From contig NC_091144.1 in the NCBI RefSeq assembly GCF_041381155.1, forward strand, positions 34,883,262 through 34,947,261: 64,000 nucleotides of DNA. Reading direction: 5' to 3'. Positions 3,656 through 26,262 of the stretch are shown piece after piece. The notes beneath the pieces are model-generated. The model was not told where the DNA came from. It made no database searches and was given only the letters and a program-made list of their open reading frames with translations. Position numbers and translations under genes: made by a program. Positions within the stretch are counted from its first letter, which is position 1. Each line of letters starts with the position of its first letter. This DNA is from Argopecten irradians. Its lineage: Eukaryota > Mollusca > Bivalvia > Pectinida > Pectinidae.

Positions 3656-3666
3656 TCACTCGGTTT

Positions 3667-3722
3667 CACTTACATGACCCTGGCTGTTAGTAGGACGTAA
3701 ACTAATGAAACAAACAAACAAT
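3667..3722 (+). repeat. SINE-like fragment (3' end)
   Basis: It carries the family's terminal block: TTACATGACC, GGCTGTTAGTAGGACGTAA, then a (CAAA)n-type tail. Only the last ~55 bp are present. Confidence 0.65.
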
Positions 3723-3950
3723 ACCTTACCTACAACAGTGCGTATATATAGCTTTCCCGAAGGAAACCCATGTCACATCGAAATAGTAAGTTTGAATTGT
3801 ATAATTTTATTAAGCGCTAGCGTTAGTTTCAATTGACCATGTAATATTTTAACATGAATGTGTAAGGTCATTATGACAAACGCTATACGAATTACCATAT
3901 ACATTGAAATATTCCATGGTAATAGAGTCAATGAGTTTTGAACAATCTAT
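3723..3950. other. Unassigned spacer between SINE copies
   Basis: No coding or repeat signal recognised. Confidence 0.3.
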
Positions 3951-4487
3951 GTTTGTTTGTTTGTTTGATTAATTAACTCCTATTAACAGCTTTGGTCATG
4001 TAAGGACGGCCTCCCATGTATGCAGTGTGTTGCGTGTATGTTGTGCGAGGTGAGTGTTTTGGGAGACTGCGGTATATTCATATTGTGTCTTCTTGTATAA
4101 TGGAACTGTTGCCCTTTTTATAGTGCTATAACACTGAAACATGCCGCCGAAGACACCAAGCAACACACCCCACCCGGTCACATTATACTGACAACGGGCG
4201 AACCAGTCGTCCCACTCCCTGTATGCTGAGCGCTAAGCAGGAGCAGAAACTACCACTTTTAAAGACGTTGGTGTGTCTCGGCCAGGGGACAGAACCCAGA
4301 GCCTTCCTCGCAGCGGCGAACGATCAACTCAAGGCCAAAAGTGAGGAAGTGCTAAGGGAGGCATTAGGAAAGGTAAAAAGTCAGTTAGGAAGAAGAGACA
4401 AGATAAGATTCTAAATTAAGTCGTCTTTTACGATCATGCAATAGGGGCAGCAGGTACAATTCTAACGCCCTACCTGCAGGGTCAATC
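3951..4487 (-). repeat. SINE-like element, near full length (~530 bp)
   Basis: On the plus strand it opens with (GTTT)n, then GATTAATTAACTCCTATTAACAG, and ends near the CCCTACCTGCAGGG block. Read on the minus strand, a tRNA-like stretch with a box B-like GGTTCTGTCCC comes first and the (CAAA)n tail last, which is why the minus strand is called. The middle contains a CACCCGGTCACATTATACTG block shared with all fuller copies here. The tRNA-head reading is inference; repeat identity rests on about ten copies in this window. Confidence 0.8.
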
Positions 4488-4902
4488 AGGCGCTATAGGG
4501 GTCGCTAAATAATACCACCATAGTTTGCCAGGTACTGATTACACAAGTTTTGTCTTATCCATCATCCTGCATGCAACTGTATCCTTCAATGGCTATTGCT
4601 TTCTAGCAGTTTCATTTTGCAAGTTATAAATTAACTTTAATTGGAATAGGTCGGTCAATGTTTATAATATTATTCTCAATAAAATACTATTGTTACTAAA
4701 TTAGTTCTGGAAAGATTTTTTATTGACGAAGACTCTTGGTTCTGTCATTCAGTCATGCAACACCGTAGACTATATGAAATGCCATATATCCTGAGATATA
4801 AGAACTTAATAACTTTGGTAGGATGTCAGTAAAATCGAAGAATCAACCAGTTTACCTTTGCGGTAGCCAAATTCCCGCATTCGTTACTCTAAAATCGTTT
4901 TC

Positions 4903-4906
<4 letters not shown>
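4488..4906. other. Unassigned AT-rich DNA
   Basis: No exon, repeat terminus or RNA gene recognised. Confidence 0.4.
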
Positions 4907-4941
<35 letters not shown>

Positions 4942-5270
4942 TAACGTCATATTAATAGCCAGGGCCATGTAAGGACGGTCTCCCATATAAGAAGTGTCAT
5001 GCGTGTATGCGTGGTTTGTGTTATATGAGACCGGTATATTCATGTTGTATCTTCTTGTATAGTGGAACTCTAGGCCTTTTTATAGTGTTATATCAATGAA
5101 GCATGCCGCTGAAGACACCAAACAACACACCCCACCCGGTCACATTATACGGACAACAGGCGAATCAGTCGCCCTACTCCCTGTGTGCTGAACGCTAAGC
5201 AAAAACTACAACTACACATTTATAGACTATTGACTCGGCCAGGGGACCGAATTAAGAGCTTGACCTAACA
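4907..5270 (-). repeat. SINE-like element, truncated at its 5' (tRNA-like) side
   Basis: It starts with seven or more TTGA repeats instead of GTTT, then the conserved AATTAACGTCATATTAATAG block, the CACCCGGTCACATTATACGG block, and fades past GGCCAGGGGACCGAATT. The tail microsatellite differs from the other copies. Confidence 0.75.
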
Positions 5271-5495
5271 GACATTAATCTGTTCAAAATAAGTGAAATT
5301 ATGGACAAGATTTCTACATTTTGATAACACTTCTACTAATGAGTCTAAAAGGGAAGATCTCAATTTAAACAATAAAACAACATACACGTTGTATTCTACT
5401 CGGAGAGGGTAAACAGCAGAAGGAAACCGTATCATGAATATGGATTTTCTTTTGTAGGGTTTTGGATTTTATTAGTTTAACGTTCTTGTAAGGAC
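5271..5495. other. Unassigned spacer
   Basis: AT-rich; no feature recognised. Confidence 0.3.
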
Positions 5496-6735
5496 GTGTC
5501 TATGTTGTCAATTTCCAAATGGAGATGTATTATCTTTTTTGATAACAATCAATTTTTGGCCAGGAACTTGAAAGTGCAGTACAATTCGAAGGCAATGATC
5601 AGTGTTATTACCATACTTATCCATATCTTTCCCAAAGAATTATTTAATTTTTTCAAGAAGACATCAATCTTTCACCTCGTTCATGGTTATATAACTACTC
5701 TAAAAGCATTCATGGTATCACATCCGACATTTTCACACTGATCCAATCATCCTCTGTCATTTTCAATAGTTCCCGAGACAATTTTATCAACCAAATAATT
5801 CGAAAGGTTTATGATGGGCTTAAGTCTGACAGGGATGTTGTTAGGGAAGTAATAAATGGCAACGACCAATTTGATTTACCCATCACCAAAGGTGATCCTT
5901 ATGCACATGTCGAACACACTAATTGCGACCCCCAAACATTGTACATGGTGAACCATATATGAAAAACCCTTGTTCATATGAGTCAGTAACATCTGTATTG
6001 CAACACATCGTAAATTAAACCATTGGACACAGCAACAGAAAATGGGCGATCCTAGGATGCGATGGATTGCAATTTCTTGTAGGATCACGGCTTATACAAA
6101 AACATGATGAATTGTGAAATATTCTTTTACAACCAGGATTTGGACACTATGAAATTAACATAACAAAAACTTGTTTTAAACTCTTGGGATGTAGCTCGAT
6201 CAGATTTAGGCAAAATGTTAGGTTTCAACTCCATACAAGCTCAACTTTGTTGCCAGAAAGCCACAGACCACCATAGATCTTGGCAGATTTTATCAATTTT
6301 CCTTTACGGGTCTACTGATGAACTCGTATATCCGTATGTCAAGTTTTGCATGGAAATGGATGAACTACCGGCACTCAGTGGTTTTTACTCATGGTGTAGA
6401 GAAATTGAAGATCCAAGGTTTCTATTCATGATAGGTGCCATTTTCACTTATGTATTTGCGTTGTTTTTGTTCAGAAGTGCTTTTCGCCGAAATAACAGTG
6501 ACGTTATGGTCGCAGCAAGAACAAAGTTTTCTGCTTTGTTCTACGGCTTGAATATGACATCTTATCAGGAAATATAGACTACTTAGATCTGAAACGTAGG
6601 ATTCTTTCACCTAATCAAATTAAGTTTTTCATGGAGCATCGGCGCATTCTCTATTAGTGGCTATACCAGTGGAGGTGAAGGCGGATTTTTTTATTCTTGA
6701 GGGAAGCAACAGACGTACAAAAAAGGTTTACTTGT
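5496..6735 (+). pseudogene. Decayed ORF resembling DUF6589-family protein
   Basis: The best frame (6215-6577) reads MLGFNSIQAQLCCQKATDHH, SWQILSIFLYGSTDELVYPY, VKFCMEMDELPALSGFYSWC, then an RSAFRRNNSDV stretch and FSALFYGLNMTSYQEI. I recall this order (a KDHH..SWQ block, a YVK..C block, a hydrophobic strand, RRNN, then F..LF.GxNxxxYQxI) from DUF6589 proteins, which are expanded in cnidarians and molluscs and often sit near transposons. About 6640-6720 reads GYTSGGEGG followed by a shifted match to the E.NR..K end. Upstream (5500-6200) only broken pieces are seen, with stops and frame changes. It lies between two SINE-like copies. The function of DUF6589 proteins is unknown to me; this copy looks dead. 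Confidence 0.5.
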
Positions 6736-7255
6736 TTGTTTGTTGTGATTATTTCAACCTCCTATAAACAGCCAGGGTCATGTAAGGAGGGCCTTCCATT
6801 AATGGAGTGTGTGTAGCGTGTGTGAAGTGCTAGGTGCGTGTTTTGGGAGACTGCGGTATGTTCGTATAGTGAAACTGTTGCCTTTTTTTTATAGTGCTAT
6901 ATCACTGAAGCATGCCGCCGAAGACACCAAGCAACACACCCCACCCGGTCACATTATACTGACAATGTGCGAACCAGTCGTCCGACTCCCTGTATGCTGA
7001 GCGCTAAGCAGGAGCAGAAACTACCACTTTTATAGACTTTGGTGTGTCTCGGTCAGGGGACAGAATCCAGAGCCTTCCTCAAAGGGGCGAACGCTCACCT
7101 CAAGGCCAAAAGTGAGGCGGTGCTAAGGGAGGTTTTAGGAAAGATAAAGTCAGTTGGAACGAAGAGAAAAGATAAGATACTAAATTAACTCGCCTTTTAC
7201 GATCATGCAAAAGGGGCAGCAGGTACAATTCTAACGCCCTACCCTGCAGGGCCCA
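6736..7255 (-). repeat. SINE-like element, near full length
   Basis: It has the same block order as the copy at 3951-4487, from (GTTT)n to the CCCTACCCTGCAGGGCCC end. The two copies are close in sequence over the central region (CACCCGGTCACATTATACTG, GCAGGAGCAGAAACTACCAC), so both are probably young. Confidence 0.8.
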
Positions 7256-7615
7256 ACATTTTAAAAGTAAAGTGAGGAATAATTTCAATCCCTTCGGTCA
7301 TTTACGGAATAAATGGCGCTTGTTATTTGATTAAGTTGTATTTTCGCTCCTGAACGGCTTTGTATACAGGTAGGCTTATAGCTCGAGATATTTCAGTCCA
7401 AATAGCTAATAGATGAGAAGCGGCATAAATAAGTACGTGTAATCCTTTGCGCGAGGCAGAGAGCTGGACAGCTCGCGAGGTACACCTGTGTCAGGTAAGC
7501 ATGGGTTAACTGCCACTTTGTATATAGGGCCGTATAGCTCGATAGAACCAGTATTGGTTCACAAATAGGAATATAAGTTAATGTACTGGTAATGGCTAGA
7601 ACGCCAAGACAGAAT
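7256..7615. other. Unassigned DNA
   Basis: Somewhat richer in GC than the surroundings (for example around GCGCGAGGCAGAGAGC), but no frame, exon or repeat end is recognised. Confidence 0.35.
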
Positions 7616-7973
7616 TGTATTATTGCATGATCATAAAAGGCGACTGAATATAGGACGTTATATTTACTCTTTTACCTACCTGACAATAATGATAATTTCT
7701 GCTCCTGCTTAGCGCTCAGCAAAACGGGAGTGGGACGACTGGTTCGCCCGTTGTCAGTATAATGTGACCGGGTGGGGTGTTTCTTCGGCGGCATTTTTCA
7801 GTGATATAGCACTATAAAAAAGACAACAGTACCACTATACAAGATGACACAATACGAACATACCGCAGTCTCTCAAAACACGCAACTTGTACTTCACAAA
7901 CACTACATACGTGGGAGGCCGCCCTTACATGATTTGGCTGTTAATAGGACGTAAATATAATCGGACAAACAGT
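7616..7973 (+). repeat. SINE-like element lacking the tRNA-like head
   Basis: It starts ATTGCATGATCATAAAAGGC, then jumps to the TTTCTGCTCCTGCTTAGCGC block and runs to GGCTGTTAATAGGACG. The box B-like segment seen in other copies is missing, consistent with an internal deletion. Confidence 0.75.
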
Positions 7974-8096
7974 TGGTTTTAGTTGAACTATATATATTAT
8001 AGTGTAAGTGAGAAGGGCCAGGACAGTTCGTACAGTTCGTATATTTCTCCTAGGTGATACATATTATACTACGTTAGTTGTAGGATGTAATGCTTG

Positions 8097-8200
8097 TTTC
8101 TTTGTTTGTTGGATTCAATTAACGTCATATTGACATTCAAACATTCAGAGTAATGTAAGGACGGCCTCCCATGTATGCTGTGTATTAGGCCTAGCTAGCT
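8097..8200 (-). repeat. SINE-like fragment (3' end)
   Basis: It has (GTTT)n-like start, AATTAACGTCATATTGACA and GTAAGGACGGCCTCCCATGT, and then loses similarity. Confidence 0.6.
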
Positions 8201-10574
8201 AGAGTTGGTACAGTGATATGTAACGTAGGGGAGAAATATAGGAATAGTCCCAAACATAAAGATTAAGTTTATACGAAATGAGTAGGTTCGTCATTTTACA
8301 TGTATAAAAAAAAAAAATTTTTAAACTGGGGATTTTTATTTCCTTGGTGACTCATTTGCTACAGTTAATAACTATTTCTCCTATTCGTCCGCATATTGTC
8401 CGTAATCCAGAATACTCAGTATTATTTATTATCGTTAGGTTTAGAATTGTTAGCAATACTGATTATGGCAGCAAGTTGAAATACTGGACTGTTATATCTG
8501 CCTTTTGGTTTCATTTCTCTCATCTCCCGCCTGAAAAAAAACATGATGGAAAAGGGTATTTTGAGGAATGAGTATCTGAGATTACAGAATAACACAACGC
8601 AAAGTACTGAGACCATTCCCGCTATATACGGGACACATATTCGCCAGAAATTTCGCCTCTACTACACAGTAAGAACCACAACACGGAAATCCGGAGGCCT
8701 TCCACAATTGTAAGGCTACTATAAACACACGAGACCTTACGGTATTGGTTGTTAATAATCAGGGATTACGGATGCAATCACTCAAACTAAAGAAAAACTA
8801 AAGTGACGGATCTTTAGATACCGAATGCAATATTCACCCAACACTAAAGAAAATGCAAAATAAAAAAAAAGAATATTAGAAATATATAGTCCTATGCAGC
8901 TTTTATAAATCAGTTGTATTTTTTTCAGAACGTAAATATTGTAATGGGACCAAAAAAAGGTTTTTATCATATACCTATTTAGAAATCAAATTTCGCCTAG
9001 TTATGTGATTGTACATGATGCATATGTACAGTGTAGATTGTATCGTTACTTACCGAAGAATACATGCTGGTGAAAGTTTTTAACAAATAAGATTAATTTT
9101 AATAGAGATATAAATAAATCAGACTCTCTTAGATGAATGTTTTTTTTTTTTTTAGCCGAAAATGTGTTAGTTTATTATTGCATTGCATGATGTTATAGCA
9201 AATACCCATAGTACAAATTTTCTGAATTGAATCTGAAACTAATTGAGATACGATAACTAAATAAGTCTTCTATAATAATGAATACCGTACATACCCAAAC
9301 CTCTGTTTTACGTTTAACATTCTAGCATGTGGTAGATGTTTATGTTATAGTAATTCTGACTTAAAATTATAGGTTTTACATAAAATCGGAGACACGCACA
9401 CCTTCCACCGCGCTCTAATTTCTTACTGTGCTACAGTATAAATTTCATTCCACGAATTGCCGTCAAAATTTTTATTCATTTGGTGGTCTATATGAATAAA
9501 ACTAACCATGTAAAAAAAGCAAAGCAAGATTAAATTACCGTTTTTTTTAATCACATAAGAAACGTAATTCGATTTTTTTATATATATCTATTGGCAACCA
9601 GGTATTATTATATTATCTTGTTGATTTCGATTATTTCCCGATTTGTCATAATTAGTGTTTTAAAAGTAAAACATTGATTTCGTTATTTCATGAAATCCAT
9701 AGTATGCAGAAGACGCTCAAAGCAAAGATTAACAGATGACTCTAATCTCTATCTTCACTGTAATATTAACAAAAGTTTAATACCAGAACTTTTTCTATAA
9801 GGGTTAAATTTGGCAAAAATGGCCGAAAATGGTGCATTTTGTAGCTCAAAATTAAGAGGTAGGGATAGCATATAGTCTTATTATTAATACTGGTATATTT
9901 TTAAAGAAGAATACTGGAAAATAAATTCCACAAACATCCATAAATATCACACACCTCATTAGGAAATTATGACTTAAATTTCTTGTGTATTATGGTCAAA
10001 ACAGCAAAATTCACATAAAATCCAGTATCCGAGCACACGGACATTTGTTTTTTCTTCCATTTTTCTTTTATGGTATGAACTCCTATTTCCAAAAATCTAT
10101 ATGAGAAAAAAAGTTTAATAAAACAAAATTGTGGAAATAGTGAAATATTCCGATAAATGGTCGATAGGTAATTATACATCCTGTTAAATGGTGACCAAAT
10201 AGTAGGATACAATGTATTCCGATAAATCTCTATCTTGACGGCAATGCGAATAAAGTATACATAATGTACATGTTTCATAATTGTCCTCTTTTTAATAATA
10301 ATTAACGATTTTTTAATACATGTATACATGTAAATTCAGTCCTGCAAAAATGATTTTCAAATTCGCTCCTGATAATTTGATATATAGAGAACGCATCGAT
10401 TTTTTTATATAAATATTTTTTCATGTCAAATATAAGGCATGTTTTGTTTTGCTCACGATAAAACATAAGAATATTAATCAAATAGACATAACAAGCCGGA
10501 ATATAAAAACACCCGCCAAATTTGACCGGGTACCAAGTCGCATCAGCCAATCAGACGCAATGATACAAATTGAT
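8201..10574. other. Long AT-rich stretch, nothing recognised
   Basis: Frames of up to 120 codons occur (for example on the minus strand at 9967-10329), but they are rich in Ile, Lys, Phe, Asn and Tyr as expected of AT-rich non-coding DNA. They show no domain and no splice-site-bounded pattern. A 5' part of the gene starting near 10940 could lie here, but I cannot see it. Confidence 0.4.
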
Positions 10575-10745
10575 TTTCAGACGTAAGTTACGCAAAATCC
10601 TACGTCTACGTTTACACGTACGTGCAGAGTTAACGCCCTTTAGTGAAACACATCTTATGCACACGTAAGTTCGGACGTAAAGTCTACGTTTACGTCCTAC
10701 GTCTACGTGTAGACTTACTGACCTTTAGTAAAACTCAGTCCTGGT
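10575..10745. repeat. ACGT-rich repeat cluster with short inverted repeats
   Basis: Motifs such as CTACGTCTACGTTTACACGT recur on both strands. A short palindrome, GGACGTAAA paired with TTTACGTCC, lies near 10674-10698, and CCTTTAGTGAAAC / CCTTTAGTAAAAC occurs twice. It looks like a worn repeat rather than coding DNA. Confidence 0.45.
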
Positions 10746-10935
10746 CCTTCGGTTACGTCACAACTTGGATTATATTAATAATAGTCTCTTTTTCGAACAG
10801 TTCCTCAGGGTGACGTTCTAAGACCATCGGAATTTTATGTAAATAGTCTGTACCCGACATACAAATTAGCAGCATGGGAGACGCCCTAAGACCATCGTTA
10901 TTTGTGTACTGTAATTAAATGCATTTCATTTTAAC

Positions 10936-11142
10936 AAAGTTGGAAAAGATGGGTCAGCAAAACAGATAGTGGTGTTAGCCAGTGTCTTGACACAATACTG
11001 TCAATGCTTAGGAGATGTGCCCATGCATGCACCACGTCAGAATATGAAGATGCGTTACATAAACTGCAAAATTCGTCTTACAGGTCCAGCAAAAGTCGTT
11101 TTTCGAAACTGGCTCACAAAGACTTGGATGACTGAAGCAAAG
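10936..11142 (+). CDS. Linker exon upstream of SWIM finger (MULE-like)
   Basis: One frame reads TDSGVSQCLDTILSMLRRCA and continues with TTSEYEDALHKLQNSS. A second frame then continues with VFRNWLTKTWMTEAK and ends at a canonical donor, AAG|GTAAGT (11143). In MULE transposases the region between the DDE domain and the SWIM finger has this shape: a helix pair, then a WLxxxWxxxxxxW-type segment. Two good half-matches in different frames imply a single frame change inside the exon. The acceptor is weak and the start is uncertain by several bases. Confidence 0.45.
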
Positions 11143-12128
11143 GTAAGTTTAAAGACATGGATATCCTTGAGCTTAACTTTATAAGATTTTTCTTAATCCT
11201 TAATTAGGGGTAACAACCCCACCCCAAGAATTTCTTTGCTAACAGTCATTTTGTTGGATACCTCAGAAACCATCTCAATCCTAATCACTCAACAGAATGA
11301 AAAATGAACATGACCTGATAGTATTACCAAACTTTTAATTTCAGTTGACATAAAATAGTTATCAACTGATATAGCAGATACATATTCTCACCCTAATTTA
11401 GATGGAAATAGCCTCACATAATGCAAGAACATGACAATGTGTCCTTCTTCTTAATGATTTATTTAGTTTATCAATATTATTAATTCTGTAATTTTAATAG
11501 ACATGGGTATGGGCAAACAGAAATGAAAAAGGTCCCTTGGTAAATACAAATAATGGCCTAGAAAGTCAAAACAAAGTCTTCAAATATCAGTTCCTGGAAA
11601 AGAAAGAACCATAATCTGTCGGGGATGATTCAACACTTCTCCAGGAATACTTACCAACCCTGATGTTACAGGAAGTCGCAATAATGATTATCTTAATCGG
11701 TATTGAAGTTTACATTTTTTTTTCATTTTACACATTTAATTTTTGTACAAGCGTTAAATGCATATTTTTTAAAGGAACCAAAATTTAGAATTTTATTGCA
11801 ATCGAAAACAAATTGAAAATGAAGATAATAAGGATTTTAATTAGACTATGTAAAATGTAGCAAATATCTGCTGTAAAGGTCATCTCTATGATTAATATTA
11901 CTAGTCTTTTGAAAATGTAATTTCTGTTATTATCATGAAGTCAATGGAACAATATCATCGGGTGTATATCTCTTGTTAACATGTTCATGTTTACATAGCA
12001 CATTGTTTGGTAATTTTTTTAAATTACCAGTAATTATGGTCTTATAAATTAAAATTAATAATATTGGTTTTTTTTTTATTTCCAAACAGATTTTAATATT
12101 TTTTTTAATTCTATGTTGTTGGGTTTTT
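11143..12128 (+). other. Intron of the SWIM-Ulp1 gene, AT-rich
   Basis: AT-rich DNA with long T runs and no recognised repeat or exon between the linker exon and the tandem-core element. Confidence 0.4.
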
Positions 12129-13494
12129 AGGTCACCTGAGACGAAGTCTCAAGTGACCTATTCTAATCGCCTTTTGTCCGTCGTCGTGCGTCGTCCGTCG
12201 TATGGCGATAAACAATTTACTTTTTCGACTTCTTCTCCAAAACTACTGAACCAAATTTGTTGAAATTTTGCAGAAACCTTCCACAGCCAAAGGTCAACCA
12301 AAATTGTGAATTATATGGTCCCAGCCCCCCAGGGCCCTGAGGGGTGGGGCCAAAAGGGGTCAAATAGGCTAAAACTTCAAAAATCTTCTTCTGAAATTCC
12401 AGAAATGGTAGAATCAAATACTCTTCATAGATTGAAAGGTCTTGAGGTCCTTTACAAAAATGCGAATTATATGACCCTGGGATCTCACGTTCCCCCAGGG
12501 AGGGGGTCAAGTTTGCTATAGTTTATATAGGGAAAAGACATTTTTGAGCATTATTTGGTCATTTGTAATAGGATATAAGTCAAATGTTGTCAGAATTATC
12601 AGTATGAGATGGCCATTGAATCTTATTAACAGTTTTTCCACGACTGACCCCCAGGGGCCTGAGGGGTGGGGCCAAAAGGGGTCAAAGAGGCTAAAACTTC
12701 AAAAATCTTCTTCTGAAATTCCAGAAATGGCAGAATCAAATACTCTTCATAGATTGAAAGGTCTTGAGGTTCTTTACAAAAATTGTGAATAATATGACCC
12801 TGGGGTATCACGTTTCCCCTGGGGAGGGGTCAAATTTACTATAGTTTATATAGGAAAACTCATTTTTGAGCATTATTTGGTCATGTGTAATAGAAAATGA
12901 GTCAAACTTTGATAGAATTATTAGCCTGAGATAGTATTTTAACATCATATCCATATTGGTCCTGGCCGACCCCAAGGGGCCAGAGGGTGGGGTCTAAATG
13001 GCAAAAATTTCAAAAGTCTCCTTCTGAATTTACAAATTTGATGGAACCAAATACTCTTCATAGATTGGAAGGTCTTTTTAAGGCCCTTTACAAAAATTGT
13101 GAATTTCATGGCCCTGGCATCTCAGACTTTCCCCTGATTAGGGGTCAAATCTATTTTAATTGATATTGGAAAAACACATTTATGAGCATTATTTGCTTAA
13201 TTTTCAATAGGTCAAACTTGGTTAGAATTATTACCCTGTGATAGCATTTTAGCATCATATCCACATTGGTCCTGGCCAACCTCCAGGGGTAGATGGGCGG
13301 GGCCAAAAGGGGTCAAAATGACTAAAATAAGAAAAAAAATCCTCTGAATTCACAGATTTCATAGATTTGAAAAGTCAGTTATAAAATTACTGACTGGTTT
13401 CAGGGCCTGATGGGCCAATATATAGTGTTGTTTTGTGTCATAGTTCCATTCTGTCTCCGAACTCAGGTGACCGCTAAGGCCCATGGGCCTCTTG
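12129..13494 (+). mobile_element. Pearl/Helentron-like element with ~325 bp tandem core, intronic
   Basis: It opens with a stem-loop at 12130-12158: GGTCACCTGAGAC and GTCTCAAGTGACC around a GAA loop. A CCGTCGTCGTGCGTCGTCCG block follows. Three and a half units of ~325 bp (starting about 12297, 12641, 12969 and 13267) carry CAGGGGCCTGAGGGG-type and GGTCAAA blocks. Near the right end CTCAGGTGACC (13462-13472) is the complement of the first 11 bases, and a palindrome AGGCCCATGGGCCT (13477-13490) precedes a CTTG end. Subterminal inverted repeats, a 3' hairpin and a tandem core fit Helentron-derived elements. The frames inside are repeat shadows. Confidence 0.75.
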
Positions 13495-13794
13495 TTTTGT
13501 TTAGTTGTACAGTGCATGCGACGAGTAAGTGTATGAAGATATTGTATTGGTGCTGCTTTGTATTATCATCAGCAGCTAATATATATGTTTGCCACAGTAT
13601 CTTTTTAGTATGCCTTTAGTATGCTTAGTGCTGCTTACATCCTATCATATAACAATTTCAAATCCAAAATTAATAACATTTTAGTATATTAGCTTTAATT
13701 GTTGTATATCTTAACTATGTGCTCATTTTTAACCTACATTTGAAGATGTTATTACATTTATTCAGTAAGACGACATTTTTATGGTTTTATGCTT
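13495..13794. other. Unassigned intronic spacer
   Basis: AT-rich; nothing recognised between the two tandem-core elements. Confidence 0.35.
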
Positions 13795-14700
13795 TATGTC
13801 CTGGCGCGGCGTCCGTCGTCCCCATCGTCCGTTCGTCAACATTTCGTTTTTAAATCGCTACTAGTCATAGAGTTGTGCATGGATTGTAACCAAAGTTGGC
13901 CACAAATCATCCTTAGGGGGAAGGGGAACAGAACTTGTATAAATTTTGGCTCTGACACCCAAGGGGCAGGAGGGGCGGGGCCCAATAGGGGAAATAGAGG
14001 TAAATCCTATAAAATCGTTACTTGTCCTAGAGTTCTGCATGGATCGTAACCAAATTTAGCAAACAAACATCCTTGGGGGAAGGGGACCAGAACTTGTATA
14101 ATAATCATTTTGGCTCTGACTCCCCCGGGGGCAGGAGGGGTGGGGCCCAATATGGGAAATAGAGGTAAATCTGATAAATCGCTACTTGTCCTAGAGAGTT
14201 CTGCATGGATTGAAACCAAATTTGACCAAAATATCCATGGGGGAAGGGGAATAGAGTTTGTATAAATTTTGGCTCTTACACGGAGCTTGAGGTAAAAAAG
14301 GGGCGTAGGCCCAATAGGGGGACATAGAGGTAAATCCTATTAAATCGCTACTTGTCCTAGAGTTCTGCATGGATTGCAACCAAATTTGGTCAGAAACATC
14401 CTTGGTGGAAAATGAAACAGAAACTTGTATAAAATTTTGGCTGTGATCCACCAGGGCTAAAAGGGCGGGGCCCTATAGGGGAAATAGGTAAATCCTATAA
14501 ATCGCTACTGTCCTAGAGTTCTGCATGGATTGTAACCAAATTTGGCCAGAAACATCATTGTGGGAAGGGGAACAGAAACTTGTTGATTTTGGCTCTGACT
14601 TGATTGGGCCCAAAAATTAAATTTTTACATGATTTGAAACCAAATTTGACCACAAATTAGACATAAACAGGGAAGTCCTTCATTTTAAAATCGCTACCAA
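13795..14700 (+). mobile_element. Second tandem-core repeat family (~160 bp units), intronic
   Basis: A GGCGTCCGTCGTCCCCATCG block is followed by about five units starting near 13850, 14008, 14175, 14340 and 14500. Each has AAATCGCTACTTGTCCTAGA, a GTTCTGCATGGATTGTAACC block and a GGGGCAGGAGGGGYGGGGCC-type block. Layout (CCGT block, then tandem units) matches the elements at 2228 and 12129, but the unit sequence is different. No terminal hairpin was found. Confidence 0.6.
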
Positions 14701-14794
14701 AGTTTGATTTAAACCAAAGGTAGGCAATATGTTTCTGATTATCTACTAATTAAGTGTTTGAATACAGTTTACGTAATAATGCCAATGTTTTCAG

Positions 14795-15487
14795 GTGTCT
14801 AGTCAGTCAGCTGTTGAAAAACAGTTTTACATTGTAAACTTGGATTGTGGTAATGGACTGCCAAGCTGCAACTGCCACATTTGGAGCTGGACATTGTTGC
14901 CTTGTAAACACATGTTTGGGGTCTTCGCACATAGCCAGTATTCATGGGAGGATGTAGCTGAACATTACAGGAGTTCACCCTTCTTCAACATTGATGATGT
15001 GGTAGTGAAGATTCCTGTGACTTCAGGTTCAATCCCAGAATAATTGCTTGAGGACCCAGACATCGTATCCAATGCAACAAGTGGGGAAGAAACGGGTGTT
15101 GGTGATTTGCCTCTAGCAAAGAAAACATCAATAAAACTTAAAGCACTTACCATCACATGTAGAGAAAAGTTGTCTCTCCTGCAGAATGCGACATACCTGT
15201 GTCAGCATGAAGACGCTTTGAATGCACTAATTGATGTCCTTGATATTGAGATCATCAAGATCAATAACAATTTATATAAAGATCACGGTCTGTGTGAGGA
15301 GGCACCACCACCTCAACAAAAACAAGGTGGCTGCACAGAAAAATGAAAAACCTAGCAGACTGAAACTAAACCGTTGAGGAAAAAAAACCTGTGTAGTTCA
15401 ATACCATTTCGAATACCATTGATGCATCATCAACCATCATTGTTGATGGCATTGTCGAGAACAAACAACTTCAAGAGGGTATAACAG
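14795..15487 (+). CDS. SWIM zinc-finger exon
   Basis: The acceptor TTTTCAG precedes 14795. The frame reads through LPSCNCHIWSWTLLPCKHMF, a SWIM-type CxCx9CxH, followed by a GVFAHSQYSWEDV stretch like the helix after SWIM fingers in MULE transposases. A TAA at 15041-15043 interrupts the frame, which then continues in phase to about 15330, ending in a proline/glutamine-rich segment. After a frame change a further stretch ending ENKQLQEGIT reaches a possible donor at 15488 (ACAG|GTATC). SWIM fingers bind DNA or protein; here the role is unknown. Confidence 0.6.
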
Positions 15488-15689
15488 GTATCAACTTATA
15501 TTGATTTAGGCTGTCGTAAAATTAACTTAATACTATAAAACAAATCAGAATAAAAAGAGGGGTAAATCTGGGGCTGTTTACAAGATAGACAACACTTTAT
15601 TTAATAAGTTATATACATATCTATATTATTAGGATGAAACCTTATGATATGTTGCCTCCTTTGTTTTTTTTAACTTTTTAATATCGCAG

Positions 15690-15785
15690 TCATGGCTTTT
15701 CAATTTGAATCTTTAGAAATGGTAAAAGAAATGTCACACGGTGAATGGCAGAACTTGATTCAAGATGCAGATCGCACATGTTCCT
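15690..15785 (+). CDS. Possible exon between SWIM and Ulp1 domains
   Basis: An acceptor-like ATATCGCAG precedes a short frame reading MAFQFESLEMVKEMSHGEWQ and on to TCSFQ, then a stop. It is placed where an exon is expected and has mixed composition, but no domain is recognised and no clean donor is seen. Confidence 0.25.
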
Positions 15786-15914
15786 TCCAATAATTGCTAA
15801 ATGCTTCAAATGATGACTTATGAAACCACATGAGAAGTTAGGTCTTAATGGAACACTTTGATAAGTTCTTTTTCCACCATACATTGTATTTAGATATCGT
15901 GTTGATATTTTCAG

Positions 15915-16045
15915 CTCTGAATCATGTTGATCGCATTTGGGAGCAATCTAAGGAGTCCAATTATATACTAACAAAAGTATATGGATTTAATATTACTGAT
16001 TTGGATATCAAATCTTTGAAAAGAGGAAAGTGGTTAACTGATCAG
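15915..16045 (+). CDS. Ulp1/C48 peptidase exon 1
   Basis: Bounded by TTTTCAG and by CAG|GTAAGT. The frame reads NHVDRIWEQSKESNYILTKV and ends ITDLDIKSLKRGKWLTDQ. The end is the start of the C48 fold: an L..L..G.WL.D segment that continues into the next exon in phase. No stops inside. Confidence 0.65.
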
Positions 16046-16251
16046 GTAAGTATGAAAATGTTATAAATGATAGATGTATTATTTGAAAAACATGTGATTA
16101 TTATTATAAATTTTATCAAATAAGGACAATGACATACATGCATTGATTTTGGTACTTTGATATCAGCTTTTTCAATAGAATTACTACTTTAAATATGGTT
16201 AGGTTGGATTTTTTTTTTTTTAATATTTTTAAACCTTTGTTATTAATATAG

Positions 16252-16373
16252 GTCATGGATAGTTACCTTGCCTGTTTAGCACAAAAGGAACTGGACAAAG
16301 GAATAAAAGTCAAACATGAAGCAGTATCAACAATGACCAACATTATCAATGATACCCATGTTTGTGAATACTG
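16252..16373 (+). CDS. Ulp1/C48 peptidase exon 2
   Basis: It follows TTAATATAG and starts in phase after the previous exon. The reading VMDSYLACLAQKELDKGIKV matches the helix after WLxD in Ulp1 proteases (a V...Y...L pattern). The 3' border is uncertain: GTAAAA at 16374 gives a phase that does not fit the next exon. Confidence 0.6.
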
Positions 16374-16645
16374 GTAAAAATATGGTGTCATTATAAATTT
16401 TCGTTGGGTGAAATTCTGCACATATTTTTAAATTATAATTTCAGTCTGTTGCCAATTTCACAATAAGGTATCAATCAGATTTTTGCAGTTACGTTATGCT
16501 TTCATCATGGAAGTCACCCCCTCCTTGTTCTAATATAAAACTGTAATACAAATTTGTAGTGTTTAATCTTAAAATTTATAAGGTGTTGATCAAAACAAGT
16601 ATATTTCACTGAAAATATGGTTAAATATATGATTTGTTTCTTCAG

Positions 16646-16714
16646 TACCGCGTCATGGAGTATGACTTTATAGTAGAAGCTTACCATCAACGAGGAGGCC
16701 ACTGGGATTTAGTG
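16646..16714 (+). CDS. Ulp1/C48 peptidase exon 3, catalytic His
   Basis: The acceptor CTTCAG and the donor GTG|GTGAGC bound YRVMEYDFIVEAYHQRGGHW followed by DLV. HW is the conserved catalytic histidine plus tryptophan of the C48 family, followed by a hydrophobic strand. Confidence 0.65.
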
Positions 16715-17135
16715 GTGAGCAGTTCATAACATAATTATTGAAAAAAAAACAATTTGTACCCAAGGAAAGATATTTCATCTTCGAATAGAGTTGTCTCTCT
16801 ATTGATTGTGACATCATTCCTTTGTGAGCAAAAACTACATCATTTTGTATGAATAATATGACGTAACACTCACAGTAACATGACATATCAATCAGTTCCT
16901 AATCACAAAAACAGATAAAAAATTATGTGAAGAATAAGTAGAGGATATTGCATTTCAAGTGAATTATTTTACACCCTGTTATCATATAATTAAGTATATC
17001 AACCTTACAATGTTTTGGGCAAACACATTTATTGTGAGTTAATGAAAAGTTCGCACAAGTAAATAATATCTTTTCCCATTTCATCCGATATTGGTACGTG
17101 GATATGTCATATATAGGTGATTATTTGTTTATCAG

Positions 17136-17224
17136 ATTGTGGAACCAAAACGAGGAGCTGTGTTCTTTTAAAACCCACTAGGGGAAACTTCGTGTCAGCT
17201 AAGAAGGGCAATTAACAGCTGGAG
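17136..17224 (+). CDS. Ulp1/C48 peptidase exon 4, acidic/Asn position and a stop
   Basis: After TTTATCAG the frame reads IVEPKRGAVFF, a TAA at 17169-17171, then NPLGETSCQLRRAINSW. In active C48 proteases the residue before the LG is the catalytic Asp (DSLG or DPLG). Here it is Asn, which some related cysteine proteases of the clan use. The TAA probably replaced a Leu codon. Confidence 0.55.
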
Positions 17225-17645
17225 GTAACCCATTTTCAAAACAATAATGTCCGTCATTGTTGAAGAATAAGAATTAGTAGATTAGTAGACTATGATTATA
17301 ACTGTCAAGTACCAGTAATAACTAATGAGATAGATTGAAAGGTAGCAATGGAATCTCGTTTTTTTAATTGAAAAAATACCTTTACATTTAACTATCAAAA
17401 CTGTGTATAAATTTTATTCATTGAGATAATTTATCATAGTTGCAGTATATTTTGACACATGAATTGGTAGGAAATGACTAAGGTCTGAGGATTTTTGTGA
17501 TATATCAACCAAATAAAATTTGGACAGTTACATTGATTATTACTAAAAAAATGTACATAAATGTATATTCATGTGTAATTTTTCATATCATTTACACACA
17601 TTATCTCAATAAAACTCTGATGTATAAAACATCCTGGCATTTAGA

Positions 17646-17703
17646 GACCAAAGATCACGCTCAACAACAAGACAGCTGCAACTGTGGAGTGTACTGTTTG
17701 ATG
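17646..17703 (+). CDS. Ulp1/C48 peptidase exon 5, catalytic Gln and Cys
   Basis: The frame reads TKDHAQQQDSCNCGVYCLM and ends at ATG|GTAAGT. QxDxxNCGVY is the C48 signature: Gln forms the oxyanion hole and Cys in CGV is the nucleophile. The join to the exon at 17136-17224 is out of phase, so an exon may be missing or a base lost. Confidence 0.7.
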
Positions 17704-17997
17704 GTAAGTCAGGGTTAAATAAATCTCAATCATGATGAATTCTGGAAAAAATATTGACCTATTTAATTTTTATGTTTCCATCTGTTTTTCCCTATTTTTA
17801 AATTTTCAATGTATGATTCGTTAAATATTCAATTGTTCAATGCAATCTCGGTAACTTAAAGCCTTCTGATGTCAGAAGTGCAACATGCTCTGCAAACTAG
17901 TTCTTGGGGAATTTTTACATATATCTTCCACTTGATGTGAAAATCAAATCCTACTGCATTTATTGCTATTTTTTATTTACTTAATTTCTGTTTGCAG

Positions 17998-18093
17998 AAA
18001 GACATCTGACAGGAGAAACATTGTTGGGTATCTCCAGGACTGATGTGGAATCGAAGAGAAGGGAGATTGCACGTACATTCCTGCTTTATGAAG
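17998..18093 (+). CDS. Ulp1/C48 peptidase exon 6 (end of domain)
   Basis: Bounded by TTTGCAG and GAAG|GTAAGA. The usable frame reads RHLTGETLLGISRTDVESKR and on to REIARTFLLYE, the closing helix of the fold. Its phase does not match the exon before it, which suggests a small indel. Confidence 0.5.
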
Positions 18094-18292
18094 GTAAGAT
18101 AAAAAAAAACATACATTGTAGTGTAAAAGTTAATTTTCAATTCTAAGTTATTAATAAATGTTTTACTCAATTGCACTAACGGTACTCGATTTTAGAAACT
18201 GTCTACTTTGATACTCAAATATCCTTAAAGAGACACAATTGGAATACTGATGGTTTACAATTTTGTAACCGATTCTTTTGTACATTTTGCAG

Positions 18293-18361
18293 TATACATG
18301 GAAAAGCAGTGTCCTTGTTATGGATTTGAAACCACCAAAGAAGACCAGAACAATATTGTAG
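18293..18361 (+). CDS. PHD-like finger, first half
   Basis: Acceptor TTTTGCAG; phase agrees with the previous exon. The reading VYMEKQCPCYGFETTKEDQN gives the first cysteine pair (CxC) of a PHD-like finger. The donor GTAG|GTCCTT is weak. Confidence 0.45.
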   Translation, partial: YTWKSSVLVMDLKPPKKTRTIL

Positions 18362-18567
18362 GTCCTTTTCATTGTTTGATATGACTTTCAATTTGTATTT
18401 ATCTTTCAGTATTTTTTACACTTTTCTCACTTCTTATAATGAGGTCACAATGTAAATCTTAAGTCCTGTGTTAACAAAATATTATCTTTACATTGAATAA
18501 AAAAGCAAACAGATATGAGCTTATCAGTGGTTCATTTGTTTATCAAATTTCAATTTTATCTTTTCAG

Positions 18568-18679
18568 TTACAATGCCAAACCTGTGCCAGTCTTTCACAA
18601 AAAGAACCACTGCGTGAGAGAACAGATGGCCAATGCTGTAGGAGTTCCTTTTAGATGCAAAGTGTGCAGTCTTGTATAG
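18568..18679 (+). CDS. PHD-like finger, second half, and stop
   Basis: After TTTTCAG one frame reads LQCQTCASL and another reads FHKKNHCVREQMANAVGVPF followed by RCKVCSLV and a TAG at 18677-18679. Taken together these give CxxC, H, C and a final CxxC, the spacing of a PHD finger. The switch of frame lies near 18590, so one base has been gained or lost there. Confidence 0.45.
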
Positions 18680-18707
18680 AGGACACAACTATATATATGA
18701 TTTATTT

Positions 18708-18868
18708 AAAGAATGATTTTTATTTTTTTGTTGTTTACTGGTGTGTAAACTGCATTTTTTGTACATATATTTTAAATGACGCGCGTCAGCGCGCCATGTT
18801 GAAATATCTGTACAAAAAATGCAGTTTTTACACACCAGTAAACAACACAAAATTAAAAACATTCCTTA
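18708..18868. repeat. Palindromic repeat, copy 1
   Basis: Two arms of about 70 bp, TTGTTTACTGGTGTG with an AACTGCATTTTTTGTAC block on the left and their complement on the right, flank a GC-rich centre (GACGCGCGTCAGCGCGCC). Similarity to the copy at 23518 continues past the right arm for ~65 bp, so the palindrome is part of a larger repeat. Confidence 0.75.
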
Positions 18869-18935
18869 TATTTACATTTCGACCGACCATTTCATTTAAA
18901 TTTAGTGTTCCGGTGAAATTAACCTTCGTTTTTTC

Positions 18936-20315
18936 AACGTTAAACGATTGATGGAACCGCTGAGTAATTGATGGAATCGCGAAACAGCTGGCTCCAATTT
19001 GGCGGGAACATGTGTCAAGTTCCGGGAGTAAATAAAATATAGTTCAACAATAACTTAATCGTTTTTAATCCATTTATTCCATATGTTTTCATTTTTTTTA
19101 TTTTTTTAATGTTAACACAATGCGACTCATTGCATTCAAACTGATGTTGATATCGAACCCTTGTAATGGCATATATTTTAGCCTAACCGGATGCGCATTC
19201 ACATAATGGCGAAAGTCAGTGTTTTGGTTTTGTGTTCTTGCGCAGCAGCCCCTCTGCGTTTACGCAAGTGTAAACGATTGCCCGGTTAGTAAGGTTATAT
19301 AGGAAAGTGAAAACGAAAATGTAAATATTACTCTACATTTTGTGTTTACACTAGTCTATTTAGAAAAGTTTGTTATGCTATATGCATTTTAAAAATAAGA
19401 AATTATTTAATTATTAGTGCGATTGTACTCGTACTATTATTGTCCTTGTCGGGTGTAGAATATGTGTACATCCGCTATGCGCAGATTCCAACTGCGCACG
19501 CGATAGTCAGTGTCTTATAGCGTTTAATTGATTTCGCCATGATTTAGTGACACCAAACTTTCAAAAACATATATTTAGATATACCTGTCAGCGATAATCT
19601 ACTATAAATTAACAACAGTGACATTTCAAAGTGCTAAACGCATTTGTTTTGTGTAAACTTCAAACGACGTATTATACAAACCCTTGCATCGGTCAAGATA
19701 TTATAAGCATCTGATCGACTTTGGAAACTTCCGGAACAATACAATGCAATTTAGGTTTCTATAGTCAATAAAAGAAAGTGACGAAACGGATAACTTTTAG
19801 TACCAGCTACATATTTAATTTATTTCACGTCATCGTAGGTGTACGTTGCACTATCGCTTACTTAACCCTGTGACCATGGACCGCATTTGCTGCAGTTCTA
19901 ATTAATATTTATAAAATTGCACAGCTTTGCGTAAGAGAAACAGAATAAAAAACACATCATAAAATATCAGTCTGAGTATGTGAGCTCTAGATCTAATGTA
20001 CCCTAGAAAGGCGTTCAAGCATGACACAGGTAGGTCACCGCGTGCAGAGACTGGACGTTGTTCTAGCGGACAATTATTTTTTTAACAACGAAACAATTTG
20101 TTGTATCAATCAATAATTTCAATTAATGAAAGTAAAGGAAAGTATTTATTACAATGCACCCAACCATCTCCTTGCAATATTCCCAAGGATAATGAGCGAA
20201 AGTGATACGTACACCTGTTGCAGAGGATGATTTCATAGCGGAAATTAAGGATAGGGAGTATTTAGCGTGCACTTAATGTCTAACAGACATATTTCTAGTT
20301 AAAATGTTTATATTC
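18936..20315. other. Unassigned DNA with promoter-like GC-rich spots
   Basis: Around 19185-19290 lies GGATGCGCATTC, then a short frame starting ATGGCGAAAGTCAG. Around 19465-19505 there are further TGCGCA-type sites. These resemble NRF1-like promoter motifs, but no exon chain can be followed. The rest is AT-rich. Confidence 0.3.
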
Positions 20316-20469
20316 ATAGGGATTGGATTTCGTTTTTATGTTAACCATGCTTGTATGGAGCGATTCCTTTAAGAATATATTCTATGGGGCGCGTTACCCA
20401 TAGAATATATTCTTAGAGGAATTGCTCCATACAAGCATGGTTAACATAAAAACGAAATCCAATCCCTAT
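20316..20469. repeat. Near-perfect 154 bp foldback (inverted repeat)
   Basis: The arms, about 72 bp each, begin ATAGGGATTGGATTTCG at 20316 and end in the complement at 20469. Between them lies a ~10 bp loop (GGCGCGTTAC). I count only a few mismatches across the arms. No clear flanking duplication is seen. Confidence 0.85.
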
Positions 20470-21539: not shown

Positions 21540-22150
21540 AGTGATCTGACCTAGGGGATCTGGTAACTGACAAAGGGTACAGTGTACTGCCTAGTGATCT
21601 GAATGACTGACCTAGGGGATCCACTGGACTGACTGGATACCGGTGCTGACTGGGATCCGGTAGACTAAACAAAGGGATTCAAAAAAATAGTAGAGTCTTT
21701 TTCTTCTTGTTTCTGACCTAGGGGAGATCGGTAGACTGACCTAGGGGATCCGGTAGACTGACCTAGGGGGATGACCTAGGAGATCCAGAAGACTGACCCA
21801 AGAGATACTATAGACTGACCTAGGGGATCTGGTAGACTGACCTTGGGGATACTACATATGTATATACTGACCTAGAGGATCCAGTAGACTGATCTAGGAG
21901 ACCCAGTAGACTGACCTAGGGGAGATGGTAGACCGACCTAGGGGAGCCGGTAGACTGTTCTTAGGGATACTATAGACTGTCCTAGGAGATCCAGTAGACT
22001 GACCCAAGAGATAATATAGACTGACCAAGGGGATCTGGTAGACTGACCAGGGGATCCAGTAGACTGACCTAGGAGATCCAGTAGACTGACCAAGGGGATC
22101 CGGTAGACTGACCTAGGGGATCCGGTAGACTAGGTAGACCTAGGAGATAT
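21540..22150. repeat. Minisatellite, ~22 bp units
   Basis: Around 25 imperfect copies of a unit like GTAGACTGACCTAGGGGATCC run for about 600 bp. Many contain the palindromes CCTAGG and GGATCC. One ~40 bp non-repeat insertion (near 21661-21715) breaks the array. Confidence 0.85.
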
Positions 22151-22847
22151 CTCTATTTATATTAAAGGGACATGAACCTAAATAAAACATGTAAATTTGA
22201 GTAAAATACATATTTAATACGTGTCAGATACCTTACTAAGTAATATATATCAGATCTATATCGATTGCTGAAGATGATGTTAAAACACCAAATAATGCAG
22301 GTTTTCTTGTTTAATTCTCCCAAACTTGACAGGGTTATCCCGCGGTTGTAAGGGAAAAGATAACTGTCTATTACGGGTGAGGAAAAGACAGTCAACACGC
22401 ACTTGACAATAACGTGACGTCATAATTATATGCAGTGATCATTTTCGACGACGTCATAATTTTGATGCATTACAACGTCGCTTTAATGACGATGCTTTCA
22501 AAATGTTTCTAAACAAATGAACTTTCACGTTTGTCGTTTAAGTATGTGAGAAAAATAATCAAACATAGGTTTGTCATGTGGACAGGGATATATCGATCCT
22601 CGTGAAAGATATTGGCCGTCAAAATATTTCACTCGAGTTGAGATATCCTTGTCCACATTTCAGACCTATGCAAGATTCTATCAATCTAGATTAACAGATA
22701 ATGTGTAGTTCGTTGTTTGTTCGTTTGCCGTAGTGATAATCAACTACCACACATAATTTAGAAAACGCTGAGAAAAATATGACGACCCGCTTAATGAAAA
22801 TTAGTAGTCTGTTTAGAATTGCACAGGTAAATGAATCCCAGTATTAA
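22151..22847. other. Unassigned DNA with several TGACGTCA-like sites
   Basis: It begins TTAAAGGGACATGAACC, which resembles one end of the TTAA elements but has no partner. ACGTCA/TGACGTC motifs occur near 22415-22495. No exon is visible. Confidence 0.3.
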
Positions 22848-23345: not shown

Positions 23346-23517
23346 CATAGTATTAACAGCAAGCTAGTAACATTTCGGACCCTACAAATTTCTCACGTTT
23401 GTTATACAGTTGTCCCTAGACTACTTTTATTGATATATTTCGAAAAAAATTGATTCTCTGGACTTTGATTTCATATTCGACTCGCTACGTTTCACGGTTT
23501 TTGGGCCTCAAATTATC

Positions 23518-23669
23518 TAAGGAATAATTTTATTTTTTGTTGTTTACTGGTTCATCAACTGCATTTGATGGACATATATTTTAAAAGTTAGCGCCTCATG
23601 TTGAAATATCTGTCCAACAAATGCAGTTCACACACCAGTAAAAAACAACAAATAAAAATCATTCCTTAT
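23518..23669. repeat. Palindromic repeat, copy 2
   Basis: It matches the copy at 18708-18868: TTGTTGTTTACTGG start, AACTGCATTTGATGGAC arm, complement on the right, and a shared right flank (CATTCCTTATATCTAC). The GC-rich centre of copy 1 is mostly missing here. Confidence 0.7.
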
Positions 23670-25009: not shown

Positions 25010-25411
25010 TGCATCAGTGACACTTTGGCCTTGAGTTGAGCGTTCGTTTCTGTGAGGAAGGCTCTGGGTTCTGTCCCCTGGCCGAGACACACCAAAGTCT
25101 ATAAAAGTGTTAGTTTCTGCTCCTGCTTAGCGTTCAGCATACAGGGAGTGGGACGACTGGTTCGCCCGTTGTCAGTATAATGTGACCGGGTGGGGTGTGT
25201 TGCTTGGTGTCTTCGGCGGCATGCTTCAGTGATATAACACTATAAAAAGGGCAACAGTTCCACTATACAAGAAGACACAACACGAACATACCGCAGTCTC
25301 CCAGTACACTCACCTCGCACAACATACACGCAACACACTGCATACATGGGAGGCCGTCCTTACATGACCATAGCTGTTAATAGGACGTTAATAAATCAAA
25401 CAAACAAACAA
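25010..25411 (+). repeat. SINE-like element, near full length with tRNA-like head
   Basis: Starts in the ACTTTGGCCTTGAGTTGAGC block, has a box B-like GGTTCTGTCCC near 25067, runs through the CACCCGGTCA-complement core and ends GTTAATAGGACGTTAATAAA with a (CAAA)n tail near 25411. This copy best shows the pol III-like orientation of the family. Confidence 0.8.
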
Positions 25412-26262
25412 TCAAAACATCAGTGACACATTCTCAACTTATAAAATGTTTTCTCTAAAATAAAAAAAATAAAAAACCTGTAGAATGAACCTACATTTAT
25501 TCATTTATATATATTTGAAATTGATCATTTCAATTTTTGTCATATTCAACAGATATAAAAATTGTTGGTTCTTTTTTTTCAGGCACCATGCATGCATAGT
25601 GACATGAATACAGAAAGTTCATCCCTTGGACCTGTATACATGTGCATGTACATACATACAATTAGCATCATATGAAGACTGAAGAATGTTGATTTGAGTG
25701 CTCTTGAAAGTAAACTTTACCAATATGGACCTAGAAGATCATGAACAGAACATTTAAACAGTATTAATTTATTAAATGTTCCTTTCATCTGTAATCATTA
25801 AATAAAATTATGATGCAATACTTTTTCATTGTTTAACTTTGTAGAAATATTTGTTTATATTAGTCCTCTAGATCCAGTGATTATAATTCTTGCATCCATA
25901 TGCCTGCCCATTTGTTTGTCAGGGCTTGTGAGATAGCTTTTCAATTACTTTTAAAATATAAGGATTTTTTTTATATATAGCAATATAGATACCATTGTCT
26001 TAGGATTTCTAAATTCTACTTTACAAGAGAGTAGACTCAACATATAAATAAAACCATAAAACTAGCAAGTTATCTGAAATGTTACAAATCTTTTTGTCTG
26101 AACCAAATTTCACATTTATTGTCTATGTGTAACTTGTACATAGACCATTTATGTATTAATACTGTAGTAACAGTGATTACAAACACATAGACTAAAATGT
26201 AGTATGTAGTACTATGTACATCTGTCTTTGATTTGAGTTCTAAACAAAAAAAAGTGGTACCT

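What the first reader, a model, noticed from the sequence alone, without database searches (positions are those of the whole stretch)
10936..18679. SWIM finger, Ulp1 peptidase and PHD-like finger in one multi-exon gene
The exons read in order as a MULE-type linker, SWIM CxCx9CxH, a C48 domain with HW and QxDxxNCGVY, and a PHD-like CxC...CxxC...H...C...CxxC. MULEs with SWIM and MULEs with Ulp1 are known separately. A spliced animal gene joining SWIM, a C48 peptidase and a PHD-like finger would be an unusual architecture. It could be a transposon protein or a captured host protein that removes a ubiquitin-like modifier.
Basis: partly seen in the sequence, partly recalled or inferred. Interest (0 to 1): 0.75.

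Follow-up and report, generated by a model that had tools for sequence, protein, structure and literature searches.

The report
Decayed transposon gene with SUMO-protease domain
The stretch looks like the broken remains of a jumping-gene protein that once joined a zinc finger, a SUMO-protease-like domain and a second finger, a kind of combination largely described before in animal transposons, so it is mostly ordinary.

Summary
On the + strand, in order, lie a MULE-type linker, a SWIM finger (CxCx9CxH), a split Ulp1/SENP-like C48 domain and a finger with C4HC3 spacing. Six of 10 exon junctions are GT-AG with matching phase. The C48 pieces, read together, match human SENP1 in order (E 2.9e-7; Pfam C48 25 bits, cut-off 20.7).

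The "gene" is a wreck: stops in the linker exon, in the SWIM exon and inside C48, frame changes, and asparagine where SENP1 has its catalytic aspartate. This copy can hardly make the joined protein. No transposase core was found, but the scan used also missed the split C48, so a decayed core is not excluded.

The architecture is close to the known: a 2010 paper reports an animal Ginger1 transposase ending in Ulp1 plus PHD, names an alignment with Mutator transposases, and cites Ulp1 in Mutator elements of hydra and lancelet. SWIM is common in MULEs.

Best reading: a degenerate, 5'-incomplete copy of a multi-exon MULE-like transposase gene. Only the full set, SWIM with Ulp1 and finger in one animal element, may be unlisted. 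Interest is low.

The parts
10938..11142 (+). Linker exon E1: CLDTILSMLRRCAHACTTSEYEDALHKLQNSS in frame 10938, then VFRNWLTKTWMTEAK (11098-11142) in frame 10936; donor gtaagt at 11143, phase 0. Start of the exon unknown; the frame change is inferred.
   Evidence: no Pfam family above cut-off (CDC37_M 13.3 bits, cut-off 25; none)
11501..11611 (+). Acceptor taatag, phase 0, fits E1. 3' end unresolved.
   Evidence: NTNNx[LVIM]E in 2 of 200 shuffles; no Pfam match for E1 end + E1b
14795..15487 (+). SWIM exon; CxCx9CxH at 14867-14911; TAA 15041-15043 and TGA 15344-15346 in the SWIM frame; frame change before about 15400; donor at 15488 is phase 1 in the later frame and fits the next exon
   Evidence: Pfam SWIM 18.8 bits, cut-off 19.6
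15915..16045 (+). C48 exon a: LNHVDRIWEQSKESNYILTKVYGFNITDLDIKSLKRGKWLTDQ, phase 1 in, phase 0 out
16252..16371 (+). C48 exon b: VMDSYLACLAQKELDKGIKVKHEAVSTMTNIINDTH...; 3' end uncertain
16646..16714 (+). C48 exon c with catalytic-His block YRVMEYDFIVEAYHQRGGHWDLV; frame starts at the acceptor, phase 0 out
17136..17224 (+). C48 exon d: IVEPKRGAVFF, stop TAA 17169-17171, NPLGETSCQLRRAINSW; Asn in the column of SENP1's catalytic Asp
   Evidence: alignment
17626..17703 (+). C48 exon e with Gln and Cys block KTSWHLETKDHAQQQDSCNCGVYCLM; start arbitrary (no clear acceptor); donor phase 0
17998..18093 (+). C48 exon f: RHLTGETLLGISRTDVESKRREIARTFLLYE; phase 1 in (does not fit exon e), phase 1 out
18293..18357 (+). 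First half of finger with C4HC3 spacing: (V)YMEKQCPCYGFETTKEDQNNI
   Evidence: no Pfam match
18568..18679 (+). Second half of the finger, in two frames: LQCQTC (frame 18568), then VFHKKNHCVREQMANAVGVPFRCKVCSLV and stop TAG 18677-18679 (frame 18569)
   Evidence: no Pfam match; no PHD match in the PDB

Best explanation
This is a degenerate, 5'-incomplete copy of a multi-exon Mutator-like (MULE) transposase gene of an animal, whose ancestor encoded linker, SWIM finger, Ulp1/SENP-like C48 peptidase and C-terminal PHD-like finger in one chain. Inferred mechanism of the ancestor: an RNase H-fold core (not found here) cuts and joins DNA, the SWIM finger helps bind element DNA, the C48 domain removes SUMO or a similar modifier from the transposase or from host repair or silencing proteins, and the PHD-like finger binds a chromatin tail or partner. 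Shown here: the order of the sequence blocks, splice-compatible junctions and the lesions. Not shown: the core, activity, transcription. This copy itself most likely makes no functional protein.
For: SWIM and C48 matches and their order; extra linker exon with NTNN block fitting exon E1 in phase; 6 of 10 junctions GT-AG and phase-consistent; stops and frame changes in linker, SWIM exon, C48 and finger; Asn in the catalytic Asp column; SWIM listed for many MULE groups and Ulp1 or Ulp1+PHD in animal Ginger1 and Ulp1 in Mutator transposases.
Against: No DDE/RNase H domain was found on the + strand in 1-19998, though the same scan also missed the split C48 domain, so this is weak. No terminal inverted repeat could be assigned: a 390-bp inverted pair at 94% (3950-4339 and 25024-25414) does flank the locus, but that repeat has 11 matches in the window, itself included, on both strands, so I read it as a dispersed repeat. 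The MULE label of the linker is recalled resemblance; no Pfam model matched. Four of 10 junctions do not fit or are unresolved. The finger halves match no PHD model. No relative was found in the collections available, which are prokaryotic and viral.
Confidence: 0.7

Rival explanations
1. A single-copy host gene derived from a transposase (domesticated, ZSWIM-like) that acts as a deSUMOylating chromatin protein, here recently lost or mis-assembled.
For: Several clean exons and splice phases survive; Cys, His and Gln of the C48 site are present.
Against: Stops at four places plus frame changes along the length, and Asn for the catalytic Asp. Two of the stops (15041, 17169) stand in a frame that goes on beyond them, so single-base indel errors of an assembly would not explain them.
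Confidence: 0.1
2. Ulp1-PHD tail of a Ginger1- or Zisupton-type transposase, not of a MULE.
For: Ginger1-9_HM ends in Ulp1 and PHD; Zisupton is recalled as a zinc-finger and SUMO-protease transposon.
Against: A SWIM finger with an upstream NTNN-type linker fits MULEs (recalled); the Ginger paper does not mention SWIM (0 occurrences). No paper in the library held Zisupton together with 'SUMO protease' or 'Ulp1', so Zisupton was not compared.
Confidence: 0.1
3. Two or more neighbouring remnants, a SWIM-bearing MULE fragment and a separate C48-finger fragment, that were never one protein.
For: E1b and the SWIM exon are 3.2 kb apart, about 2.2 kb of it repeats, with a stretch of the linker missing; the junctions E1b-SWIM, b-c, d-e and e-f do not fit or are unresolved.
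Against: The SWIM exon's donor (15487, phase 1 in its later frame) fits C48 exon a (15915, phase 1); same strand, and Ulp1 after the transposase as in published elements.
Confidence: 0.1

Closest known systems
Animal Mutator (MULE) transposases with Ulp1, hydra and lancelet (cited in PMC2836005; passages seen)
   Same: Animal Mutator-type protein with an Ulp1 domain; the Figure 1e legend names an alignment of Ulp1 and PHD domains of Ginger1 and Mutator transposases
   Different: Whether those carry SWIM could not be read (Repbase Reports and figures are not held); this copy is broken and lacks a visible core
Ginger1-9_HM transposase (PMC2836005, Table 1)
   Same: Ulp1 followed by PHD at the transposase C-terminus, introns present
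   Different: Gypsy-integrase-like core with H2C2 finger; the paper does not mention SWIM
Plant KIU/VANDAL MULEs with Ulp1 (PMC13317346 passages; PMC6446971 table rows)
   Same: MULE with Ulp1; VANDAL group listed with SWIM
   Different: Plant elements; Ulp1 sits in another gene of the element (VANC/KIU); no PHD listed for the group
Human SENP1 and SENP2 (PDB 6nnq, 2ckg, 1tgz)
   Same: Best solved relatives of the C48 part, same order of blocks
   Different: Catalytic Asp is Asn here, with a stop just before it

Membership tests
Mutator-like element (MULE) transposase | DDE/RNase H catalytic core | tested here: inconclusive
   No Pfam match in + strand frames of 1-19998; the same scans also failed to find the split C48, so sensitivity is poor; minus strand not scanned
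Mutator-like element (MULE) transposase | SWIM or other zinc finger (common, not universal) | tested here: met
   SWIM 18.8 bits against cut-off 19.6, borderline, all four ligands present
Mutator-like element (MULE) transposase | Terminal inverted repeats (some groups lack them, PMC6446971) | tested here: inconclusive
   A 390-bp inverted pair at 94% flanks the locus (3950-4339 / 25024-25414) but the repeat has 11 matches in the window on both strands, so it is no proof of ends; no other convincing pair
Mutator-like element (MULE) transposase | Target site duplication, mostly 8-11 bp (PMC6446971 table) | not tested
   Element ends not found
Peptidase C48 (Ulp1/SENP) | Profile match | tested here: met
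   25 bits, cut-off 20.7, on a read-through of joined pieces; SENP1 E 2.9e-7; exons a+b alone E 0.0012 against SENP1 but no Pfam match
Peptidase C48 (Ulp1/SENP) | Catalytic His, Asp, Gln, Cys | tested here: not met
   His, Gln and Cys present; the Asp column is Asn and follows a stop (catalytic positions recalled)
PHD finger | C4HC3 ligand spacing and profile | tested here: inconclusive
   CxC, CxxC, H-x4-C, CxxC present but in two frames; no profile match for either half
Ginger1 transposase | Gypsy-integrase-like core with H2C2 and GPY/F | tested here: inconclusive
   No integrase match on the + strand of 1-19998, same weak sensitivity
Zisupton | KDZ-type transposase core | tested here: inconclusive
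   No KDZ match in the Pfam scans, same weak sensitivity; its SUMO-protease tail is recalled, not read

The most novel reading that the evidence does not exclude
An animal MULE lineage whose single transposase carries SWIM, an Ulp1 peptidase and a PHD-like finger together, a combination not listed for any group in the MULE table rows that I saw, with intact, active copies elsewhere in this genome.
Probability: 0.3. Interest if true: 0.35.

Novelty: new member of a known kind. Interest (0 to 1): 0.13.

Why it matters
If intact relatives exist, they would help ask why unrelated transposases (Ginger1, Mutator, plant CACTA) repeatedly carry SUMO/ubiquitin-type proteases and chromatin fingers. This particular copy adds only a fossil example.

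Tried and rejected
Own genome search: none held. Relatives: SWIM exon in viral contigs, phages and prokaryote genomes, and C48 exons a+b in viral contigs: none; these single-protein scans reach close relatives only, and the other exons were not searched there. One search covered the neighbouring ORF 6164-6574, none. NCBIfam: nothing for the SWIM exon, one spurious ATP synthase match for C48. SWIM exon against the PDB: none. Finger halves against the PDB: none for the first; weak C2H2 and other zinc-binding matches for the second, rejected as chance. C48 exons a+b, c+d and e against Pfam: none. Second copy of the gene in the window: only short weak matches, best E 0.005. tRNA and Rfam at gathering score: none. 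The 390-bp inverted pair around the locus was considered as element ends and set aside because the repeat recurs in the window. Papers: all terms of SWIM/Ulp1/Mutator or SWIM domain/Ulp1/transposon in no paper; listings looked through, and passages of PMC12730594 (none of SWIM, Ulp1, SUMO, PHD) and PMC12062965 (none of the terms). Zisupton with 'SUMO protease' or 'Ulp1': no paper.
Full report
What is there. The SWIM finger CNCHIWSWTLLPCKH lies in an exon that starts at 14795 after ttttcag. Pfam gives SWIM E 0.0012, 18.8 bits, slightly below the curated 19.6. The C48 part is split over six blocks. A read-through joining them scores 25 bits against Peptidase_C48 (cut-off 20.7) and matches human SENP1 with E 2.9e-7, blocks in order. 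Because that query joined pieces by my choice, I also searched the first two exons alone, which splice cleanly: the first 11 of 20 hits are SENP1 or SENP2, best E 0.0012; the rest, E 0.35 and above, are other SENP/Ulp proteases and glutamine synthetases. The same piece and the other small pieces find nothing in Pfam.

A missed exon. Reading the gap between the first linker exon and the SWIM exon, I found TWVWANRNEKGPLVNTNNGLESQNKVFKYQFLEKKEP at 11501-11611. It follows taatag, joins the donor at 11142|gtaagt in phase 0, and resembles the W...NTNN..E..N stretch that I recall from MULE and FAR1/ZSWIM proteins. No Pfam model matches it, so that label is recalled, not tested.

Chance. Over 200 dinucleotide shuffles of the whole window, six frames, QxDxx[ND]CG[VIM][YF] never occurs; NTNNx[LVIM]E occurs in 2, the WLxD pattern in 13, CxCx9CxH in 21, [ND]CG[VIM][YF] alone in 46, the HW pattern in 78, a looser SWIM pattern in 103. 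Most single short motifs are thus not special, and the window holds a second CxCx9CxH at 48094; the order on one strand with profile support is what counts. The patterns were chosen after seeing the sequence.

Splicing. I count 10 junctions. Six are GT-AG and phase-consistent: E1-E1b, SWIM-C48a (phase 1, in the later frame of the SWIM exon), C48a-b, C48c-d, C48f to the first finger exon, first to second finger exon. Four are not: E1b-SWIM (a stretch is missing), b-c (donor unclear), d-e (donor phase 2, no acceptor that fits), e-f (phase 0 against 1). The exon bounds were placed by me from the translations, so this count is not an independent test.

It is broken. Stops: TAA 11612 (linker), TAA 15041 (between the SWIM finger and the rest of the same exon), TGA 15344 (same exon), TAA 17169 (inside C48). 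Frame changes: within E1 (inferred), in the SWIM exon before about 15400, at the e-f junction, and within the last exon, where LQCQTC and VFHKKNHC...CKVC are in different frames. TGA 15344 and TAA 11612 may be effects of frame changes; TAA 15041 and 17169 are not, since coding-like sequence goes on in the same frame. In the SENP1 alignment the column of the catalytic Asp holds Asn, right after the stop (catalytic positions recalled). Single-base indel errors of an assembly would not give the two in-frame stops.

The last finger. CPC ... CQTC ... FHKKNHC ... CKVC has C4HC3 spacing if the two frames are read together, but neither half alone matches a PHD model or a PHD structure. I call it PHD-like on spacing and on position after Ulp1, as in Ginger1-9_HM.

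Surroundings. No DDE or RNase H domain shows on the + strand of 1-19998, but the same scan missed the split C48, so a decayed or split core would be missed too. Whole frames of the minus strand and of 20000-64000 were not scanned. Of the 3.2 kb between E1b and the SWIM exon about 2.2 kb are repeats (12130-13500 and about 13850-14600). One long inverted pair flanks the locus, 3950-4339 and 25024-25414, 390 bp and 94% alike; because this repeat has 11 matches in the window, itself included, on both strands, I take it for a dispersed repeat, not for the ends of this element, but cannot exclude it. A palindromic MITE-like repeat follows the stop at 18704-18865, with a second copy at 23515-23665. 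The window holds other transposon remains: piggyBac-type and a LINE-like endonuclease. The SWIM exon found no relative in viral, phage or prokaryote collections, nor did C48 exons a+b in viral contigs; animal genomes are not held here, so copy number and intact relatives could not be tested.

Literature. PMC2836005 (section 5 read, other passages seen): Ginger1 transposases, one excepted, carry C-terminal OTU or Ulp1, one of those listed (Ginger1-9_HM) Ulp1 and PHD; the Figure 1e legend names an alignment of Ulp1 and PHD domains in Ginger1 and Mutator transposases (the figure itself is not held); the discussion cites Ulp1 in Mutator elements of hydra and lancelet. PMC6446971 (passages and table rows): SWIM in many MULE groups, PHD in Rehavkus; the groups MULE-Cg and MULE-Mollusca list no finger; the words protease and peptidase do not occur. 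PMC2528002 and PMC13317346 (passages): Ulp1 in plant MULEs and CACTA. I found no paper stating SWIM, Ulp1 and PHD in one animal protein, in searches of an open-licence library that lacks Repbase Reports.

Verdict. A degenerate copy of a MULE-like transposase gene with protease and finger tail: a new, broken member of a known kind.

Noticed in passing
window 31306-32270 (-): Fucosyltransferase (GT10) pieces: N-terminal and C-terminal domains in two overlapping ORFs of different frames.
   Followed up: partly
window 44902-45267 (+): Transposase fragment, Pfam DDE_Tnp_1_7 59.1 bits, piggyBac-type by recall.
   Followed up: no
window 5648-5959 and 6164-6574 (+): Two long ORFs with protein-like sequence but no Pfam family above cut-off; the second found no relative in viral contigs. 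Inverted copies of the 390-bp repeat lie on either side (4025-4443 and 7621-7910).
   Followed up: partly
window 59233-59550 (-) and 56745-57221 (-): Endonuclease-like ORF (Exo_endo_phos 30.1 bits, LINE-type by recall) and an ORF that looks like a reverse transcriptase C-terminus but has no Pfam match.
   Followed up: no
window 18704-18865 and 23515-23665: Two copies of a palindromic MITE-like repeat, about 79% alike.
   Followed up: no
window 3950-4339, 4917-5259, 6732-7110, inverted 7690-7971 and 25024-25414: About 390-bp dispersed repeat, 80-94% alike to the first copy; six further shorter matches and parts elsewhere in the window.
   Followed up: partly
window 21602-22153: 22-nt tandem repeat array.
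   Followed up: no
window 20316-20469: Hairpin with 73-nt arms, 97% complementary, 8-nt loop.
   Followed up: no
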